Shown: piece after piece, positions 15,733 through 22,895 of the stretch
How positions within the stretch are numbered: position 1 is the stretch's first letter
Layout: each line of letters opens with the position of its first letter
NCBI GenBank assembly: GCA_903910645.1
Contig: CAIWAD010000182.1
Span: 1 to 34,341, forward strand
Origin: an uncultured bacterium
GTDB lineage: Bacteria; CAIWAD01
Reading direction: 5' to 3'
Length of the DNA: 34,341 nucleotides
The notes under the pieces: generated by a model
The model's database searches: none
Told to the model about the DNA's origin: nothing
Seen by the model: only the letters and a program-made list of their open reading frames with translations
Position numbers and translations under genes: made by a program

Positions 15733-15757
15733 AAAAAAAAAGGCGCCCACCGGCGCC
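15733..15757 (-). terminator. Intrinsic terminator of the poly-gamma-glutamate operon
   Basis: Read on the minus strand, a GC-only stem (GGCGCC at 15752-15757 and 15742-15747, four-base loop) is followed directly by nine T (the A-run at 15733-15741). It lies 24 bases beyond the stop of the last minus-strand gene (15781). There is no T-run on the plus strand, so it mainly serves the minus-strand operon. Confidence 0.85.
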
Positions 15758-15780
15758 CTTGGCATTCCATTGACTGCAGC

Positions 15781-16914
15781 TCAGCGGCTGGACAACTGCC
15801 AGCGCAGGCCAAGGCCCCAACGCAGGACCGCGTAGTCCTTCACCCGACCAACACCGCCCCAGGCCGCCGTGCTCTTGCGCCACTCCCGCTCCACCAGCGG
15901 CGAAAGGGAGAGGCCGGCGCCCAGCTCCACTTTCCCGCGCAGAGTGAAAGTCCAGCGCCGGTCGTGGCGTCCGGCGTGGTAGGGATCCAGCAGCTCGCCC
16001 AATTCGCTTTGGTAATGACGATCCCGCAGCAGCAACGCGGCATTGGCGGACAGTCCCTTCAACGCCGCCGCGCCCGACCAGCCCATGTCCACGCTGACCT
16101 GGTCCTCCTGGTGGGTGGCGTCGCCGCTCTCGCTGTCCGCACCCAGATTCACCTGGCCTTCCTGGGCACCCGCAAAACCCACATTGTCCGCGGAAACAAA
16201 GGTGTAGCCCAGGCCGGCGTCCAGCCCCAGTGGCATGCGCCACCCCAGCTCGGCGCCCAATTGGGTGCTTTCCATGTCGTACTCGGTGAACCAGGCGTTG
16301 TAGTATTCCGTGGAAGTCCCGGCGCTAAGCGAAAGCCCCGGCTGCCGGAACCACGCGCACCGATCCTTCCCACGCGCCTTCAAGGTCAGGGTGCCGCCAT
16401 CGCTGTCGAAGGAGGCGCCATGCTCCTGCCCCGTGTCCCGGTCATTGAACTGGCGCAGGTCGAAGTTCTCCAGATGGCGCCAGGCCACATCCACGCCCCA
16501 ACCGGTCCGTGGCTGCCAGCCAAGCTGCAGGCGTTGGCTGTGGTTGCCCATGGCGGAGCTTTCCTCCACCTGGGTCCACTTGCCTTCCCAGGACAGGCGC
16601 AGGCGGCCCTGACCGGGCTTGCCTCCCGCCAGGCTCTGCAAGCTGCCCACGACCCCCTTGCGCTGGGTCAGGCGCAGATCCATGCTGGCCGTGGCGCGAT
16701 GCTCCAGCTTCAGCGCCTCCACTCCCTGGACATCCGTCTGGAAGGCGGGATCGTCCTCCAGACGCTGGACATCGGAATCGGAGAGGCGCAGCACATTGCC
16801 ATCGCCCAGCAGGCGTTCCTCCAGGCTGATGCTCCATTCCGGCGTGGCGGCGGAAAGCCGCGCCACCGAAAGCACGCCCAGACCAAGCAGCAGGGTGGGG
16901 AATCCAGGACGCAT
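15781..16914 (-). CDS. Predicted outer-membrane beta-barrel protein, last gene of the pgs operon
   Basis: A 377-residue exported protein of no family I recognise. A signal peptide (about 1-23, cleavage after LSA) is followed by short alternating polar/hydrophobic strands with many Gly, Trp and Tyr, for example LDAGLGYTFVSADNVGF, VSVDMGWSGAAAL and ANAALLLRDRHYQSEL. It ends in a run of strands finishing WGLGLRWQLSSR. Acidic stretches (DSDVQRLEDD near residue 45, the ESGDATHQEDQ loop) would sit outside the barrel strands. This is what a diderm outer-membrane barrel looks like, though no terminal Phe is present. It starts seven bases after the stop of the preceding gene and is followed by the operon terminator. 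Inference: it is the outer-membrane part of gamma-PGA export or attachment. Confidence 0.65.
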   Translation of the reverse strand: MRPGFPTLLLGLGVLSVARLSAATPEWSISLEERLLGDGNVLRLSDSDVQRLEDDPAFQTDVQGVEALKLEHRATASMDLRLTQRKGVVGSLQSLAGGKPGQGRLRLSWEGKWTQVEESSAMGNHSQRLQLGWQPRTGWGVDVAWRHLENFDLRQFNDRDTGQEHGASFDSDGGTLTLKARGKDRCAWFRQPGLSLSAGTSTEYYNAWFTEYDMESTQLGAELGWRMPLGLDAGLGYTFVSADNVGFAGAQEGQVNLGADSESGDATHQEDQVSVDMGWSGAAALKGLSANAALLLRDRHYQSELGELLDPYHAGRHDRRWTFTLRGKVELGAGLSLSPLVEREWRKSTAAWGGVGRVKDYAVLRWGLGLRWQLSSR

Positions 16915-16921
16915 GCGCGGA

Positions 16922-17872
16922 CTACTTCCCGTCGTTGCGCAGGCTGGCCCGGGGCACCAGCAGACGCAGATTCAACTCGCGACCGCTGTCGTCGAACTTC
17001 ACCGTGTAGCTGTGGCGGCCTTCTGGCACCTCGATGAACAGGGTCTCGCCGTGGGCCGGCGTGGTGTCCTGCTTGTCCGCGTACACGGCACCCCTGCTGT
17101 GGCGGCCGCGCAGCACCCAGGTGTTCTTCAGCTGGCCATCCTCCAGCACTTTCAGCTGGTACTTCTGCGTGCCGACCATGGAGCTGTTCCAGTCCAGGCG
17201 CGTGAGCACCTTCACGACGGTGGGGCCAACCGCCTCCACCTGAAGCTCCTGGCCGGAGCCCAGCACCTGATACGTGGCACGGGACTGTTTCACCTCCACG
17301 ATGCGCGTGCGGCCTTCCTGGCGCGGCAGCAAGTCCACCGTGCCGCCCTTGGGCATGGGGTGGATGCTCTTCACTTTCAGGCGCAGCAGGGCGCTCTCGG
17401 CGGCGCTCTGATCGGCCTTCACACGCAGGATGTGCGTGCCGAAAGGAATGCGGATCTCGTCCGTGGAAGCGGCGGACAACCGCGTCCACTTGTTGGGCGT
17501 GGCAAAGGAGGGATCGTCCTTGGCAGGACGCAGGCGTCCACCTCGGGATTTCACCAGTGGATGGGTGAAGCGCCCGCCGGGCTGCCCGTCCACCGTCCAG
17601 TCCAGCACCAGATCCTTGCCCTTCAGCTTGCTCTTCCACGGAGCACGGCTGACCAGACGCACCAGGGCCGGACCATTCACGCTGGCGCTGAAGGTGCCGT
17701 CCTTGGCCAGCAACCAGTAGGCGCGGCTTTTGCCGTCCACCTCCGCGATGACGCGCTTGGCGCCCTTGATGCTCCTCGCCGTGGTCCACGCCGCACCGGC
17801 GGCGCCCGCCAGCAGCATCAAGGCCAGGGTCCACACCAGGGCCCGCTTATGTTTCAATGCCCACTTGCCCAT
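16922..17872 (-). CDS. Basic membrane-anchored periplasmic protein of the pgs operon, unknown family
   Basis: A 316-residue protein. Residues 1-11 are basic, followed by one hydrophobic segment (about 12-27, LVWTLALMLLAGAAGAAW), then a large beta-rich domain that should face the periplasm. By my count it has about 53 Lys+Arg against about 29 Asp+Glu, giving a net charge near +24, spread along the whole domain. I recognise no family. Start ATG 17872 follows GGAGG at four bases; an in-frame ATG at 17890 and a longer frame lack such a site. The gene begins 37 bases after pgsW and ends seven bases before the barrel gene. The charge suits binding a polyanion such as poly-gamma-glutamate, which is inference from charge and context. 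Confidence 0.7.
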   Translation of the reverse strand: MGKWALKHKRALVWTLALMLLAGAAGAAWTTARSIKGAKRVIAEVDGKSRAYWLLAKDGTFSASVNGPALVRLVSRAPWKSKLKGKDLVLDWTVDGQPGGRFTHPLVKSRGGRLRPAKDDPSFATPNKWTRLSAASTDEIRIPFGTHILRVKADQSAAESALLRLKVKSIHPMPKGGTVDLLPRQEGRTRIVEVKQSRATYQVLGSGQELQVEAVGPTVVKVLTRLDWNSSMVGTQKYQLKVLEDGQLKNTWVLRGRHSRGAVYADKQDTTPAHGETLFIEVPEGRHSYTVKFDDSGRELNLRLLVPRASLRNDGK

Positions 17873-17909
17873 CGTTCCTCCATGCGCCATGCCAGCCGGC
17901 ACGGCATTC

Positions 17910-19076
17910 CTACATGTGCTCGTCCGGTCCGGCGCTGTTTTCACCCAGGCGCTGCATGCGCAGATCGTAGCGGATAACAATCAACACCAGCACGGCCATG
18001 ATGGCCACCGCCAGTCCCACAACGCGCAGGTCGTAGCGTTCCTTGGCGAACATGCTGCCCTCGCCGGGCTTGGCCACATGGTCCGGCCGCCAGGGGATGC
18101 CGTAACGCTCCAGCATGGCGGCGAAGGCACGCGGCACATACTTGAAGTTGATGATGGAAACACCGTGCTCGGAGAAATAGTGCACCACGCCCTTGGCCGG
18201 ATAATTGTCCTCCGGCAGATGCCGCGTGTAGCCCAGGGGGATCACATTGGCGTTCTCCGGGTGACCCAGGCTAACCACGCCGCCCCCGATGTTGATGTAG
18301 GCGCTGTAGCCCTTCAGGTCCTTGCTCACCGCGTCCTGATAGGTCTGCATGCGGGCATCCACGGCTGCGCTGATGTCCTCGTCCTCGGAAGATTCCAGCG
18401 AAAGGCTGTCTCCGTTCAGGCTGTGCACGCCGTTGCGGCGCATGGCCTCCAGCGCAAGGCGGCGGCCCTCCGGCGACAGGCTGCGGCCTCGGTCGTCGGC
18501 GCCACCAATGGAGGCCGCCACGCTGCGGAAGGGGATTTGCCCCTGGTCCGCCAGCACCTTCTCCATGTCCAGCCAATTGAAGTCCGGATCGGTGGCGCCG
18601 TACCAGGAGCTGCTCACGCTGGTGATCACCACCGGCTGCAGTTCCAGCACCTTGCAGGCAGCGTAGGCGGCAAGGTTCAGGCCCGGAAAGGAGCCCGTTA
18701 CCGCCAGTGCGACCTTGTCCCCTTTCTCCAGCCCCGCCTCTTTGAAGATCTGCACCATCATGGCGGCGGTGTTGGGATTGGTGGTGGCAAGCTTGGCCTG
18801 GTGGTTGCCTTCCGTGCTGGTGATGAGCGTGTGTTTCTGCCCGATGAGCAGGGTGCGCGCCGGGTCGTTCACCTCATCCACGAAAGCCGCTTCGGGGGCC
18901 TTGGCCTCCTTCAGCATGCCAATCCAGTTCTCCATCAGGCGGGCCGCAGCCAGCTTCTCGTCGTAGTGGGGCTGCTTCTGGGGCACGCGGCTGAACTCGG
19001 CCCAGTTGTAAAGACCGTAGGAGATCAGGGAGAGGACCACCAGGGTCCACACACTCTTCAGGCTTGGCTTAAACAT
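17910..19076 (-). CDS. pgsW: Poly-gamma-glutamate system protein PgsW
   Basis: A 388-residue inner-membrane protein matching my recollection of PgsW, found beside pgsB/pgsC in bacteria that lack the Firmicute PgsA/CapA. It has one N-terminal membrane helix (about 8-23), a long periplasmic domain with Rossmann-like segments (KVALAVTGSFPGLNLAAYAA, ASIGGADDRGRSLS, YINIGGGVVSLG), and one C-terminal helix (about 350-370) with a short cytoplasmic tail. Its biochemical role is not established; it may replace PgsA in the synthase complex. ATG 19076 follows GGGGAG and overlaps the pgsC end by eight bases. A longer upstream reading runs into pgsC and is not used. Confidence 0.85.
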   Translation of the reverse strand: MFKPSLKSVWTLVVLSLISYGLYNWAEFSRVPQKQPHYDEKLAAARLMENWIGMLKEAKAPEAAFVDEVNDPARTLLIGQKHTLITSTEGNHQAKLATTNPNTAAMMVQIFKEAGLEKGDKVALAVTGSFPGLNLAAYAACKVLELQPVVITSVSSSWYGATDPDFNWLDMEKVLADQGQIPFRSVAASIGGADDRGRSLSPEGRRLALEAMRRNGVHSLNGDSLSLESSEDEDISAAVDARMQTYQDAVSKDLKGYSAYINIGGGVVSLGHPENANVIPLGYTRHLPEDNYPAKGVVHYFSEHGVSIINFKYVPRAFAAMLERYGIPWRPDHVAKPGEGSMFAKERYDLRVVGLAVAIMAVLVLIVIRYDLRMQRLGENSAGPDEHM

Positions 19077-19521
19077 GGAAGATCTCCCCGCCCGTGACGA
19101 GCATGAGCAGCAGGCGCACACAGGAGGCCACCAGCAGGAGGCAGAGCAGGGTTTTCACCACGCCCTGCTTGTCCATCCAGTTGGAGATGAGGCCCGGAAT
19201 GATGAAGCCCACCGCCTGCATCTGCAGATCCACGCCGAACATGTCGTAGAACGTGCTCTGGCGCGAGGACCAGCCCAGCACAAAACCGATGAGGATGGAC
19301 AGTACAAGGCGCCGCCGCCCGTAGATGAACATGAACTTGGACAGGCCCTTGATGATGCCGAAGGTGGTGAAGCTCACCAGGAAGGTGCCCAGCAGGCGCA
19401 ACGGCTCGTGCATTTGCAGGGCCACATAGCCCGGCACCACGATGCCGCCGGCGCTGACGCCGATGACCTCCTGGAAGATCATGCTGAGGATCACGCCAAG
19501 GCCGACGCTGATTTCAATCAT
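19069..19521 (-). CDS. pgsC: Poly-gamma-glutamate synthase membrane subunit PgsC/CapC
   Basis: A 150-residue protein, matching the usual PgsC length of about 149, with four to five hydrophobic helices. The N-terminal block ISVGLGVILSMIFQEVIGVS and the following AGGIVVPGYVAL are characteristic of PgsC/CapC. It forms the membrane-embedded synthase with PgsB and is thought to take part in polymer elongation or transport. I start at ATG 19521, with AGGAG five bases upstream. It overlaps pgsB by eight bases and pgsW by eight bases, so the three subunits should be made in coupled fashion. Confidence 0.92.
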   Translation of the reverse strand: MIEISVGLGVILSMIFQEVIGVSAGGIVVPGYVALQMHEPLRLLGTFLVSFTTFGIIKGLSKFMFIYGRRRLVLSILIGFVLGWSSRQSTFYDMFGVDLQMQAVGFIIPGLISNWMDKQGVVKTLLCLLLVASCVRLLLMLVTGGEIFHV

Positions 19522-20683
19522 GGGCACTCCTGTCGCGGAAATAGTGGGCCACCTCGTGGCCGCCGCCGTGCACATTGCCAATGCCCACCACCGTCATGAT
19601 GGGATAGGACAAGGCCGCCACGGTGTTATAGGTGAGTTCGGGGGGAACCATGCCCAGGTTGATCACCTTTTCCTGGGGAAGGCCCATGCGGTAGCACACG
19701 CCAAGCAGTCTGTCCGTTACTTCTCCAATGAGCACCAGACGCTCCCAGGTGGTGTCCTGGTGCACCATCTCCACCAGCTGCTCGCTGCGCTCGAAACGGT
19801 CCTTGCGCGTGTTCAGGATGAAAATGGAGGCGCCGGCGTCGTCCGCCATGTCCGTCACGCGCTGCCAGATGGCCAGCGTGCTCTCCGGATCGTTGGCCGC
19901 CAGGGCGTTCACGAAGGTCATGTGCTTGCCCTCGTGGTCCACCTTGTAGAGCTTCAGCGCGCCACAGTCCGGCGCGGCGCGGTACATGCCCTCCAGGGCC
20001 ACTTCTCGGCCGACGCCCACTTCCCTGGCCACTGCCAGCGCCAGGGCCACATTCTCCTTGTGCTCGATGTGGTGGAAGTGGCGCATGTCCTCGTCGGTCA
20101 CCTGCTCGTCGGTCACCTCATTCAGCGTGGTGGAGCGCCGGGCGGCCACCTGTTTCATCAGGCCCACGAGCTTGTGTTCGCAGGTGTAGGCCACTTGGCC
20201 GAAAGGCAGGGTGTTGCACAGGCTGCGCGCCACATTCTCCACCGTGGGGCCCATTTCGCGCAAATGATCCGGCCGGGCGTTGGTGATGACGCCAATGGTG
20301 CTGTGGACCATTTTCTGCTCGGCGATCCACTGGTACTCCGGCTGCACGGCCATGCATTCAATGACCAGGGCACGGGGCTTGCGGGCCGCGGCATAAGCCA
20401 CCACGCGGATTTGCTCGATGATGTTGGCGCCCCGGGGACGGATGATGGGAATCTCAGAGCCGTCTTCGAGGATGACCTGGGGGGCGCTGCCCGTGGTTTT
20501 GGCAATGGTGGGCACGCCACCGGCACGCAGCGCGCCGGCGATGAGGCGCGTAACGCTGGATTTGCCCCGTGTGCCATTCACATGGATACGGATGGGAATG
20601 CTCAGGATGCGCCGCTGGTGGCGCCGGTATTCCAGCATGCCCAGAGCGATGGTCATGGCCACCAGCAAAGCTATGATGATCAT
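19514..20683 (-). CDS. pgsB: Poly-gamma-glutamate synthase PgsB/CapB (ATP-dependent ligase)
   Basis: A 389-residue Mur-ligase-like amide ligase that joins glutamate through gamma-carboxyl groups using ATP. It has an N-terminal membrane helix (residues 1-17), the P-loop HVNGTRGKSSVTRLIAG (residues 34-50, Lys41), a glycine/threonine loop AKTTGSAP, and ITNARPDHLREMG, which corresponds to the family's TN-x-x-x-DHLxxMG segment. Length is close to the 393 residues of Bacillus PgsB. Start ATG 20681-20683 follows GGGACGAG and keeps the membrane helix; the longer upstream frame adds 41 residues with no resemblance to the family. It is first in the pgs operon, about 130 bases downstream of a plausible promoter. 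Confidence 0.93.
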   Translation of the reverse strand: MIIIALLVAMTIALGMLEYRRHQRRILSIPIRIHVNGTRGKSSVTRLIAGALRAGGVPTIAKTTGSAPQVILEDGSEIPIIRPRGANIIEQIRVVAYAAARKPRALVIECMAVQPEYQWIAEQKMVHSTIGVITNARPDHLREMGPTVENVARSLCNTLPFGQVAYTCEHKLVGLMKQVAARRSTTLNEVTDEQVTDEDMRHFHHIEHKENVALALAVAREVGVGREVALEGMYRAAPDCGALKLYKVDHEGKHMTFVNALAANDPESTLAIWQRVTDMADDAGASIFILNTRKDRFERSEQLVEMVHQDTTWERLVLIGEVTDRLLGVCYRMGLPQEKVINLGMVPPELTYNTVAALSYPIMTVVGIGNVHGGGHEVAHYFRDRSAHD

Positions 20684-20821
20684 ACTCGTCCCGGCCTTGT
20701 TCCGTGAAAGCGCGTGTCCTGGTTGTGAAAAGGGGTGGACGCCGGTTGGGAGACGTCCATGCCGATGGTAACTCCGGCATCGCCAAGCAGCTACGCCAAT
20801 GCACAAATCACGCCAAAAGGC

Positions 20822-20850
20822 ATCATTCGCGCGTGACTGGAATGTGACAA
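20822..20850 (-). promoter_or_regulatory. Candidate sigma70-type promoter of the pgs operon
   Basis: On the minus strand TTGTCA (20850-20845) and AATGAT (20827-20822) are separated by exactly 17 bases and match five and four of the six consensus positions. A start near 20815 would give an untranslated leader of about 130 bases before pgsB. TGTGAC copies on the plus strand overlap the -35 (20843-20848) and lie just upstream of it (20871-20876), where a regulator could bind. The match is by eye and untested. Confidence 0.4.
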
Positions 20851-21080
20851 AGGAAGGGGGAAGTGGTTCATGTGACCAGAGAGGATTCGCCCTTGTCCGT
20901 TAAGCCTTTAACCCATTGCCTTGCGTTTTTTCGCCAATCCGTGCGTCCTGCCGAGCTTGCCACGCCCGTTCTCCACCCTGAGTCGGATGTCTGGAAAACT
21001 TGCCGAAGCGTCAATGGCATCGCGCGCGCGTGTGAAGGGCGTCACAAGACTTCCCGGCTTTGTTCCAGGGACCCTGCCTG

Positions 21081-21109
21081 ATGACTGAATGCCACGCTGG
21101 CCCTATCTT
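21081..21109 (+). promoter_or_regulatory. Candidate sigma70-type promoter of the secreted-protein operon
   Basis: ATGACT (21081-21086) and TATCTT (21104-21109) are 17 bases apart, each matching four of six consensus positions. Transcription would begin about 30 bases before ATG 21147, which has AGGAG at suitable distance. With the pgs promoter this makes 20684-21146 a divergent control region. I see no gene in that 463-bp stretch. Confidence 0.35.
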
Positions 21110-21146
21110 TGCATTGGGATCTTGGCTTGGGAACAGGAGCCGTGAA

Positions 21147-22895
21147 ATGGTGGGCAGCGTGCGCGGCAGTGCGTGGGGAGGATTGGGCGGCGCCCTGGCG
21201 CTCCTTGCCCTGTTCCTGCTTTGCTTCGCCCACACGGGACAGGCCCAGCTCCAGGCGGCGGATGACGCCCGGCCAACGCATGTCCAGGGGCTTCCACAAG
21301 GGGATTCCAACCGCGAAGACGCCCTGTTGTGCTACCACAGCGGCGCCGCCTACTTCATCAAGCTTCCGCATCCGGTCTACGGCATGCAGGATCACATCTA
21401 CCAGCGCGTCACCACCGGCGCGCCCGGCCACATGACGGGCTTCGAACTGCGCCTTTACAATGACTATCCCGGTCACACCCGCCACGCCGGCGCGCTCCAG
21501 CTAAGTGTGCATCGCCGGGTAAGCGGCTTGCCCGGTGCCCCGGAGCAGCTGGTGGAGCTGGACGCTGATACCCTGGGCAATGAGATCATCGCCGTGCCCC
21601 TGCCCATTCCCTTTCACTTCATGGAAGGCGAGGAGTTCTACCTGGGCCTTGGATTCCAGCCCGCCGCGGCCATGGACACCGTGGCCTATGTGACGGGGGC
21701 GCTGGGCAGCTATTCGGGCCACAGCTTCTATCTGGCGGATGGCCAGGTTACCTGGTGGGGCGATGGCCAGAGCACGCTCTTCGGGGACTTCCACTTCTGC
21801 GCCGATGTGTGGCTGGACAGCGCCCAGCCCTTTCTTCACTTCCCATGGACCTCCCTGGATTTGGGAAAGGGCTTGGAGGGCCGGGAACTGGAGCTGACCC
21901 TGCCCCTGGTGAATCAGGGAACGGCGCCCCTGGTCCTGCAATCCGTGACCATGGACGAAGCGGGCTGGAACTGCCATGTGGAGGGCCCGGACAGTCTGGC
22001 TCCAGCGGACACCCTGCTCCTGCATTTAAGTTGGCTGGCGGATTCGGCGGAGGCCATCTCAGAGGCGGAGCTGATTTTGCGCAGCAATGCCGCCAACGGC
22101 CCCGTGAGACGCCTGCCAGTGCGTGCGGCCTCAAGCGCGGCGGATGTGCTCATGGCGGATTGGGATGAATGGGAGCTGGCCACTCTTCAGGAGGGGGAAG
22201 TAGCGGAGGCGGGAGGCTGGCGCCTGTGGACGGGCTTGGGAAGACCGGGGCCTTTTATGGGCCACGATGCGGGCTGGGAGGCCCTGCATCTGGAGAACAT
22301 CCTGGCCCTGTGCAATTTGACGGTTGCCCAGGGCAGTCCCCTGCGCTTGCGCTGGACCCAGTATCAGCGCATGCGCCAGGACATGGTGTGGCACGCCCTG
22401 GTGTGGCGCTGCAATGCGGAATCCCCGTGGATGGCCGTGCCCGGCGCGGATCTGCATTCCCAGGAGTTGCTGGGGCCGGAGAACCTGTGGTGGCAGTTGC
22501 CCTGGATCTCCTTCCCCGCGCCTTGTTCGGGCAACCTGGAACTGGGACTGCTTTACGGTGGCCTTGGTGCTGGCGACCAGTGGTATGTGGACGATCTTGA
22601 ACTGGTGGTGGACGGCACCCCTGGCGCGCCGAAGCTGGAAATTGCCTCCCGCTGCGGCGCCATGGTGCTGTCCTGGCATGCGGTGCCTGGCGCCGACGCC
22701 TATTCCCTACGGCAGGTGGGCTCTGGTGGCGACCGTCTGCTGGCCTGGACCACTGCCACCAGCTGGACCCACTGGCGGGCCCAGCGCCTGCAGCAGGGTT
22801 GCTACCAGGTGCGCGCCTGGAAAGACGATGGCCGGGGACTTCCGGCCTTGCCGGAGCTGGAGGACGACTTTCCACAGGAGGACTCAGGCCCATGA
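21147..22895 (+). CDS. Secreted multidomain beta-sandwich protein, unknown function
   Basis: A 582-residue protein. Residues 1-33 form a signal peptide (hydrophobic run LLALFLLCFAH, cleavage after GQA). About 40-205 is a beta domain rich in Gly, Tyr and Phe. About 220-330 reads like an Ig-type ASH/choice-of-anchor domain (LTLPLVNQGTAPLVLQSVTM). About 340-490 looks like a jelly-roll carbohydrate-binding-type domain ending QWYVDDLELVVDG. The C-terminal part (VLSWHAVPGADAYSLRQV) is a fibronectin type III-like domain. No enzyme motif, LPxTG or type IX sorting tail is seen. Start ATG 21147 is chosen for its AGGAG site and because it puts the signal peptide at the N-terminus. It overlaps the dehydratase gene by ATGA, which is unusual for an exported protein. 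Confidence 0.75.
   Translation: MVGSVRGSAWGGLGGALALLALFLLCFAHTGQAQLQAADDARPTHVQGLPQGDSNREDALLCYHSGAAYFIKLPHPVYGMQDHIYQRVTTGAPGHMTGFELRLYNDYPGHTRHAGALQLSVHRRVSGLPGAPEQLVELDADTLGNEIIAVPLPIPFHFMEGEEFYLGLGFQPAAAMDTVAYVTGALGSYSGHSFYLADGQVTWWGDGQSTLFGDFHFCADVWLDSAQPFLHFPWTSLDLGKGLEGRELELTLPLVNQGTAPLVLQSVTMDEAGWNCHVEGPDSLAPADTLLLHLSWLADSAEAISEAELILRSNAANGPVRRLPVRAASSAADVLMADWDEWELATLQEGEVAEAGGWRLWTGLGRPGPFMGHDAGWEALHLENILALCNLTVAQGSPLRLRWTQYQRMRQDMVWHALVWRCNAESPWMAVPGADLHSQELLGPENLWWQLPWISFPAPCSGNLELGLLYGGLGAGDQWYVDDLELVVDGTPGAPKLEIASRCGAMVLSWHAVPGADAYSLRQVGSGGDRLLAWTTATSWTHWRAQRLQQGCYQVRAWKDDGRGLPALPELEDDFPQEDSGP

What the first reader, a model, noticed from the sequence alone, without database searches (positions are those of the whole stretch)
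15733..20850. Possible complete gamma-PGA synthesis and trans-envelope export system in a diderm bacterium
pgsB, pgsC and pgsW overlap by eight bases at each junction. They are followed in the same direction, with gaps of 37 and 7 bases, by a membrane-anchored basic periplasmic protein and a predicted outer-membrane barrel, then one strong terminator. A plausible promoter precedes pgsB. In Bacillus the polymer passes only one membrane. Here the operon encodes parts for the inner membrane, periplasm and outer membrane, which would solve the problem of getting the polymer past a second membrane. I know of no described mechanism for this.
Basis: partly seen in the sequence, partly recalled or inferred. 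Interest (0 to 1): 0.8.

Follow-up and report, generated by a model that had tools for sequence, protein, structure and literature searches.

The report
Outer-membrane exporter for poly-gamma-glutamate
Next to the genes that make poly-gamma-glutamate (a polymer some bacteria use as a capsule), this two-membraned bacterium carries two unnamed genes, one for a periplasmic protein and one for an outer-membrane pore; among 386 genomes searched, clear relatives of both turn up only in those that also have the polymer-making genes, so they are probably the missing route through the outer membrane.

Summary
Observation confirmed to the base: a minus-strand operon pgsB-pgsC-pgsW-P4-OMB (20683 to 15781) with 8-bp overlaps, gaps of 37 and 7, and a terminator. 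PgsB, PgsC and PgsW pass curated models; P4 and OMB match nothing in Pfam or NCBIfam. In 386 genomes across the bacterial domain, P4 occurs in 28 and OMB in 28 (20 families each), and every one is among the 45 genomes with PgsC (Fisher p ~ 3e-31 each). In several genomes P4 and OMB are not linked to pgs, so this is co-inheritance, not just neighbourhood. OMB is predicted as a 14-strand barrel, nearest to OmpG/CymA. P4 is a secreted, usually basic tandem repeat; in six genomes of four families a P4-like domain is fused to the barrel's N-terminus. All 45 PgsC genomes are diderm. Best reading: a dedicated trans-envelope export path for the PgsBC polymer, working like synthase-dependent polysaccharide secretion but built from unrelated parts. 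Corrections: P4 has a cleavable-type signal peptide, not an anchor; its basicity is not universal; 15 diderm PgsC genomes lack both genes, so it is one solution, not the only one. That the polymer is gamma-PGA and passes through OMB is inferred. I found no published description.

The parts
19514..20683 (-). pgsB, poly-gamma-glutamate synthase ligase (389 aa; P-loop VNGTRGKSSVTR)
   Evidence: TIGR04012 8.5e-128, 426 bits against cut-off 222.7
19069..19521 (-). pgsC, polytopic inner-membrane partner (150 aa)
   Evidence: TIGR04011 125 bits against cut-off 96; PF14102 115 bits against cut-off 27; only copy in the genome
17910..19076 (-). pgsW, N- and C-terminal TM segments with a domain between them (388 aa)
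   Evidence: TIGR04332 271 bits against cut-off 100; in 41 of 386 genomes, all of them with PgsC and all diderm
16922..17872 (-). P4: secreted periplasmic protein of two tandem beta-rich repeats, net charge about +20 (316 aa)
   Evidence: no Pfam/NCBIfam/PDB match; 20 homologues aligned (A2); halves homologous, hhalign 99.8%, E 1.3e-27; co-occurs with PgsC 28/28
15781..16914 (-). OMB: outer-membrane beta-barrel with signal peptide, 14 predicted strands (377 aa)
   Evidence: AlphaFold2 pLDDT 71, pTM 0.70 from two sequences; Foldseek hits CymA and OmpG, E about 1e-7; OMP_b-brl in 6 of 17 homologues, best 4e-4; co-occurs with PgsC 28/28
15739..15760 (-). intrinsic terminator after OMB
   Evidence: 9-pair stem, loop of 4, T run
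20822..20850 (-). weak sigma-70-like promoter candidate upstream of pgsB (TTGTCA-17-AATGAT)
   Evidence: 9 of 12 consensus positions; not evidence of function

Best explanation
A dedicated trans-envelope synthesis and export system for an anionic glutamate polymer, most likely poly-gamma-glutamate. PgsB (cytoplasmic ATP-dependent ligase) and PgsC (inner membrane) elongate the chain and push it into the periplasm; PgsW, held by two TM segments with its domain on the periplasmic side, receives or trims it; P4, a soluble, usually basic tandem repeat, binds the polyanion and links synthase to outer membrane; OMB, a 14-strand barrel whose inward strand residues are net positive in 16 of 17 homologues, lets it out. 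The driving energy would be PgsB's ATP-driven elongation, as in synthase-dependent polysaccharide secretion. Shown here: gene content, conservation, exclusive co-occurrence, predicted barrel fold, P4-barrel fusion, diderm distribution. Inferred: polymer identity, polymer binding by P4, passage through OMB, topology and role of PgsW.
For: P4 and OMB were searched genome-wide without reference to pgs: strong hits in 28 genomes each, all inside the 45 PgsC genomes of 386; Fisher 3e-31 per gene, 4e-21 at family level (with about 260 families assumed). 26 genomes have both, 2 only P4 (one of them, G002, stops at a contig end), 2 only OMB. They are present although unlinked to pgs in G007, G155, G294, G244, G108 and G001. 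A P4-like domain is fused to the barrel N-terminus in G061, G072, G213, G342, G275 and in a second copy in G108. Barrel fold. Signal peptides on both; P4 basic in 17 of 20. Net positive inward strand residues. All 45 PgsC genomes have Omp85.
Against: 15 diderm PgsC genomes have neither gene, so there export is solved otherwise or not needed. The diderm with published PGA production is in Fusobacteriota (Fusobacterium nucleatum, Candela 2009, cited in PMC10897055 and PMC3815933); a Cetobacterium locus from that phylum shows no P4 or OMB within 9 kb. P4 is neutral or acidic in three of the four fusion-lineage loci among the 20 aligned. The barrel model rests on two sequences, only two of five models are good and loops are weak. 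The P4 model is poor. Inward/outward assignment is by hydropathy, with no control set of barrels.
Confidence: 0.68

Rival explanations
1. P4 and OMB attach or retain the polymer at the outer membrane, or stabilise the envelope against it, rather than conduct it; the polymer leaves by another route or stays periplasmic.
For: 15 diderm PgsC genomes lack both, so synthesis does not need them; a ~1000-aa secreted PGA_cap protein and an LVIVD lipoprotein accompany them, which could be surface retention factors.
Against: A 14-strand barrel is wide enough to be a pore and resembles OmpG/CymA; a P4-like domain fused to the barrel points to hand-over at the barrel mouth.
Confidence: 0.15
2. OMB is an uptake or diffusion porin for glutamate oligomers released by turnover of the polymer, with P4 as a periplasmic binding protein.
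For: The closest folds, CymA and OmpG, are diffusion porins (function from own knowledge); the genome has a separate GGT-PgsW2-TRAP-type permease-AstE/AspA locus that could process gamma-glutamyl material.
Against: P4 and OMB sit in the synthesis operon and track PgsC; in the loci read they were not next to the GGT/TRAP module. G010 and G158, where permease/AstE-type genes follow pgsBCW, lack P4 and OMB.
Confidence: 0.1
3. The system exports another polymer: the PgsBC homologues here make something other than gamma-PGA.
For: The related capBCA locus of Francisella has not been tied to capsule production (PMC4688374). No product is known for any P4/OMB genome.
Against: PgsB and PgsC exceed equivalog cut-offs; the ~1000-aa co-occurring protein carries a PGA_cap domain.
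Confidence: 0.15
4. P4 and OMB are unrelated genes that merely lie downstream.
For: None beyond the lack of annotation.
Against: Same order in distant lineages, exclusive co-occurrence even when unlinked.
Confidence: 0.01

Closest known systems
PgsBCA / CapBCA poly-gamma-glutamate synthase of Bacillus
   Same: PgsB and PgsC belong to the same curated families.
   Different: PgsA/CapA absent from the operon, with PgsW in its place; two further envelope genes; diderm host. A PGA_cap domain is present elsewhere in the genome as part of a ~960-aa secreted protein.
Synthase-dependent exopolysaccharide secretion (alginate AlgK/AlgE, PNAG PgaA, cellulose BcsC)
   Same: Architecture: inner-membrane synthase, periplasmic link, single outer-membrane barrel; the fusion of periplasmic domain and barrel parallels BcsC and PgaA (own knowledge).
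   Different: An amino-acid ligase instead of a glycosyltransferase; beta-rich tandem repeats instead of a TPR scaffold; 14 predicted strands against 16 to 18; no sequence similarity found.
OmpG and CymA, 14-strand monomeric barrels
   Same: Closest folds to the OMB model (E about 1e-7, TM about 0.5).
   Different: 8-9% identity and no significant PDB sequence match; larger, with conserved motifs YDDNxxRYSD, YNxxFTEYD, DPxHxGR of its own.
PGA capsule model of CapsuleFinder (PMC5542703)
   Same: Also finds CapB/CapC systems in most phyla, diderm ones included.
Fusobacterial pgsBCW loci and Francisella capBCA
   Same: PgsBC with a PgsW-type third gene in a diderm.
   Different: Cetobacterium: GGT, DUF6305, TRAP permease and AstE genes upstream instead of P4/OMB downstream. 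Francisella: a three-gene locus according to the review; not searched here.

Membership tests
gamma-PGA synthase (PgsB-PgsC) | PgsB equivalog model | tested here: met
   TIGR04012 426 bits, cut-off 222.7
gamma-PGA synthase (PgsB-PgsC) | PgsC equivalog model | tested here: met
   TIGR04011 124.8 bits, cut-off 96.45
gamma-PGA synthase (PgsB-PgsC) | PgsA/CapA (PGA_cap) in the operon | tested here: not met
   no PGA_cap match in the five proteins; found on another contig, G000:C54. Classed as accessory in PMC5542703, so not decisive
gamma-PGA synthase (PgsB-PgsC) | product is gamma-linked polyglutamate | not testable with these tools
   needs chemistry
PgsW (TIGR04332) | curated score | tested here: met
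   271 bits, cut-off 100
synthase-dependent polysaccharide secretion | outer-membrane beta-barrel in the operon | tested here: met
   AlphaFold2 and Foldseek
synthase-dependent polysaccharide secretion | glycosyltransferase synthase | tested here: not met
   the synthase is a Mur-ligase-type enzyme
synthase-dependent polysaccharide secretion | TPR periplasmic scaffold | tested here: not met
   no TPR match in P4 or 19 homologues; model almost all beta, though weak
Wza/OPX capsule export | polysaccharide export domain in the operon | tested here: not met
   no such Pfam match in the five proteins
OmpG/CymA porins | 14-strand barrel fold | tested here: met
   14 strands, top Foldseek hits
OmpG/CymA porins | detectable sequence homology | tested here: not met
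   profile search of the PDB: best E 0.27, to VDAC

The most novel reading that the evidence does not exclude
PgsW, P4, OMB, the ~1000-aa secreted PGA_cap protein and, in many lineages, an LVIVD lipoprotein form an old diderm-type trans-envelope machine for exporting a peptide polymer, a class of its own beside Wzy-, ABC- and synthase-dependent polysaccharide export.
Probability: 0.45. Interest if true: 0.88.

Novelty: new variant of a known kind. Interest (0 to 1): 0.78.

Why it matters
Polysaccharide capsules of diderms have known outer-membrane exporters; for polyglutamate none is described in what I could read, and a standard capsule-finding model has no outer-membrane part for it. Two unnamed protein families, present in at least 20 bacterial families and tied to PgsC, give that gap a testable answer. 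They also give a marker for finding such systems in diderm genomes and a handle for polymer secretion in diderm hosts.

Tried and rejected
Viral-contig scan with PgsW: nothing. Genome-contig scan with the PgsW alignment: patterns too narrow, only 2 loci, both family relatives. The first iterated P4 profile picked up barrel ORFs; this traced to the P4-barrel fusions plus profile drift, and the profile was rebuilt with barrel hits excluded. P4 fold search: no hit below 1e-3; jelly-roll/CBM-like tandem domains on top, not relied on. OMB on plasmids: none. 'P4 is always basic' rejected. 'PgsA is missing from the genome' rejected: a PGA_cap protein lies elsewhere. Papers: searches for PgsW, diderm PGA export and Gram-negative pgsBC found no export mechanism; the library holds no preprints and few subscription papers.

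Full report
Observation. PgsB, PgsC and PgsW pass NCBI's curated cut-offs; P4 and OMB have no family in NCBIfam or Pfam. The promoter candidate is weak.

Where it lives. The window is a 34-kb contig of a 2.96-Mb, 296-contig genome, from a phylum with only five genomes in the held set. Two relatives have public names: a contig labelled Acetofilamentum sp. SulCav_PC08_3_68_11 and one labelled bacterium 8_bin.8. The Bacteroidota genus name of the first is probably a label rather than a placement. In the window's family the five-gene order is kept in G003 and G004, at 58% and 39% identity for OMB; in G002 the contig ends inside P4.

Spread. A domain-wide sample of 386 genomes (the tool calls most of them 'same domain', that is, outside the window's phylum) has PgsW in 41. 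Reading 40 stretches around these PgsW genes and rebuilding profiles from the family's P4 and OMB showed P4 just downstream of PgsW in many, with OMB behind it. Alignments of 20 P4 and 17 OMB sequences were then searched through all 386 genomes with no reference to pgs. P4 was found at strong E-values in 28 genomes, OMB in 28, in 20 families each. PgsC is above its cut-off in 45. All 28 and all 28 lie within the 45 (Fisher 3.5e-31 each; P4 with OMB 7.6e-36). The only matches outside PgsC genomes are weak and partial. The profiles were made from pgs-linked sequences, so very distant relatives could be missed; but unlinked relatives were found (G007, G155, G294, G244, G108, G001), each in a PgsC genome. 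In G244, P4, OMB and pgs lie on three different contigs.

Diderm. All 45 PgsC genomes have Omp85. No monoderm PgsC holder was in the sample; the control Bacillus subtilis has PgsC but no PgsW.

OMB. AlphaFold2 on the window protein and one relative gives 14 long strands in a barrel-like arrangement, pLDDT 71, pTM 0.70, two of five models good. Foldseek against the PDB returns outer-membrane barrels, first CymA and OmpG, both 14-strand monomers. Six of 17 homologues touch the Pfam outer-membrane barrel domain, best 4e-4. Many homologues end in an aromatic-rich last strand. Residues assigned to the lumen by hydropathy are net positive in 16 of 17; this has no control and is only suggestive.

P4. 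It has a signal peptide with AxA-type ends in most homologues, not a retained anchor. It is basic (pI 9.3-10.4) in 17 of 20; the exceptions are L066, L069 and L074, all from genomes in which the barrel itself carries a P4-like domain. Its two halves are homologous (hhalign 99.8%, E 1.3e-27). In G061, G072, G213, G342 and G275, and in a second gene of G108 (four families in all), a P4-like domain is fused to the N-terminus of the barrel. That is the strongest hint of physical contact between the two. The structure of P4 is not known; the model is poor.

Further parts. A protein of about 1000 aa with a PGA_cap (CapA) domain, in some lineages with a secretion-type C-terminal sorting domain, was found in full length in 17 of 346 genomes, all of which have P4; the window's genome has it on contig C54, and in G001 and G144 it lies near pgs genes. 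An LVIVD-repeat lipoprotein follows OMB in about 12 loci, though not in the window.

How it probably works. PgsB and PgsC make the chain and drive it through the inner membrane; PgsW and P4 take it across the periplasm; OMB lets it out; the PGA_cap protein and LVIVD lipoprotein may hold or process it outside. Only the parts list, their conservation and the predicted barrel fold rest on results; the path of the polymer is inference.

Limits. Fifteen PgsC genomes have neither gene. In some of them, and in the Fusobacteriota plasmid locus L106, pgsBCW keeps company with GGT/TRAP/AstE-type genes. Fusobacterium nucleatum is the diderm with reported PGA production (Candela 2009, cited in PMC10897055 and PMC3815933). 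So the exporter is one solution, or the polymer has a different fate there. The Francisella capBCA locus, whose capA carries a PgsW-type annotation, has no proven product (PMC4688374).

Known or new. I found no paper describing an outer-membrane part for polyglutamate; the CapsuleFinder PGA model has none. The library lacks preprints and most subscription journals, so a description elsewhere is possible. I call it a new variant of a known kind: known synthase, known logic of synthase-dependent secretion, new and unrelated envelope parts.

Noticed in passing
G000:C242 12821-13726 (L013 6050-11471); L014, L015, L016; L106 2475-9882: A second PgsW paralogue, secreted and without the C-terminal TM, lies in a GGT - PgsW2 - TRAP/DctM-like permease - AstE/AspA locus conserved in four related genomes; the same kind of module precedes pgsBCW in a Cetobacterium plasmid. 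Candidate gamma-PGA turnover or uptake locus.
   Followed up: partly
L107 183-3077 (G000:C54), L046 14633-17581, L087 1342-4329: Secreted ~1000-aa PGA_cap protein with PKD, CBM-like and sorting-tail domains in some lineages; full length in 17 of 346 genomes, all with P4.
   Followed up: partly
L058 5305-6327, L051 5637-6647, L066 5412-6449, L096 13418-14488 and others: LVIVD-repeat lipoprotein directly after OMB in about 12 loci, absent from the window operon.
   Followed up: partly
L096 3986-5524; L099 4424-6043: P4-like domain plus barrel in one ORF away from pgs; in G108 as a second copy besides an adjacent P4-OMB pair.
   Followed up: partly
window 21060-22895: Divergent neighbour of pgsB, a large secreted protein without a family, kept beside pgsB in all four genomes of the window's family but not found in the other loci.
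   Followed up: partly
L097 4480-5466; G192:C62, G222:C10, G322:C35: PgsC in long or doubled form: a 328-aa PgsC after PgsB in G108, and two CapC matches inside ORFs of 817-1085 aa in three diderm genomes without PgsW.
   Followed up: no
G018:C11 (L105 4342-5466), G171:C15, G309:C26: Weak P4-like domains (E 1e-8 to 1e-9) in genomes without PgsC; in L105 at the N-terminus of a 374-aa protein.
   Followed up: partly
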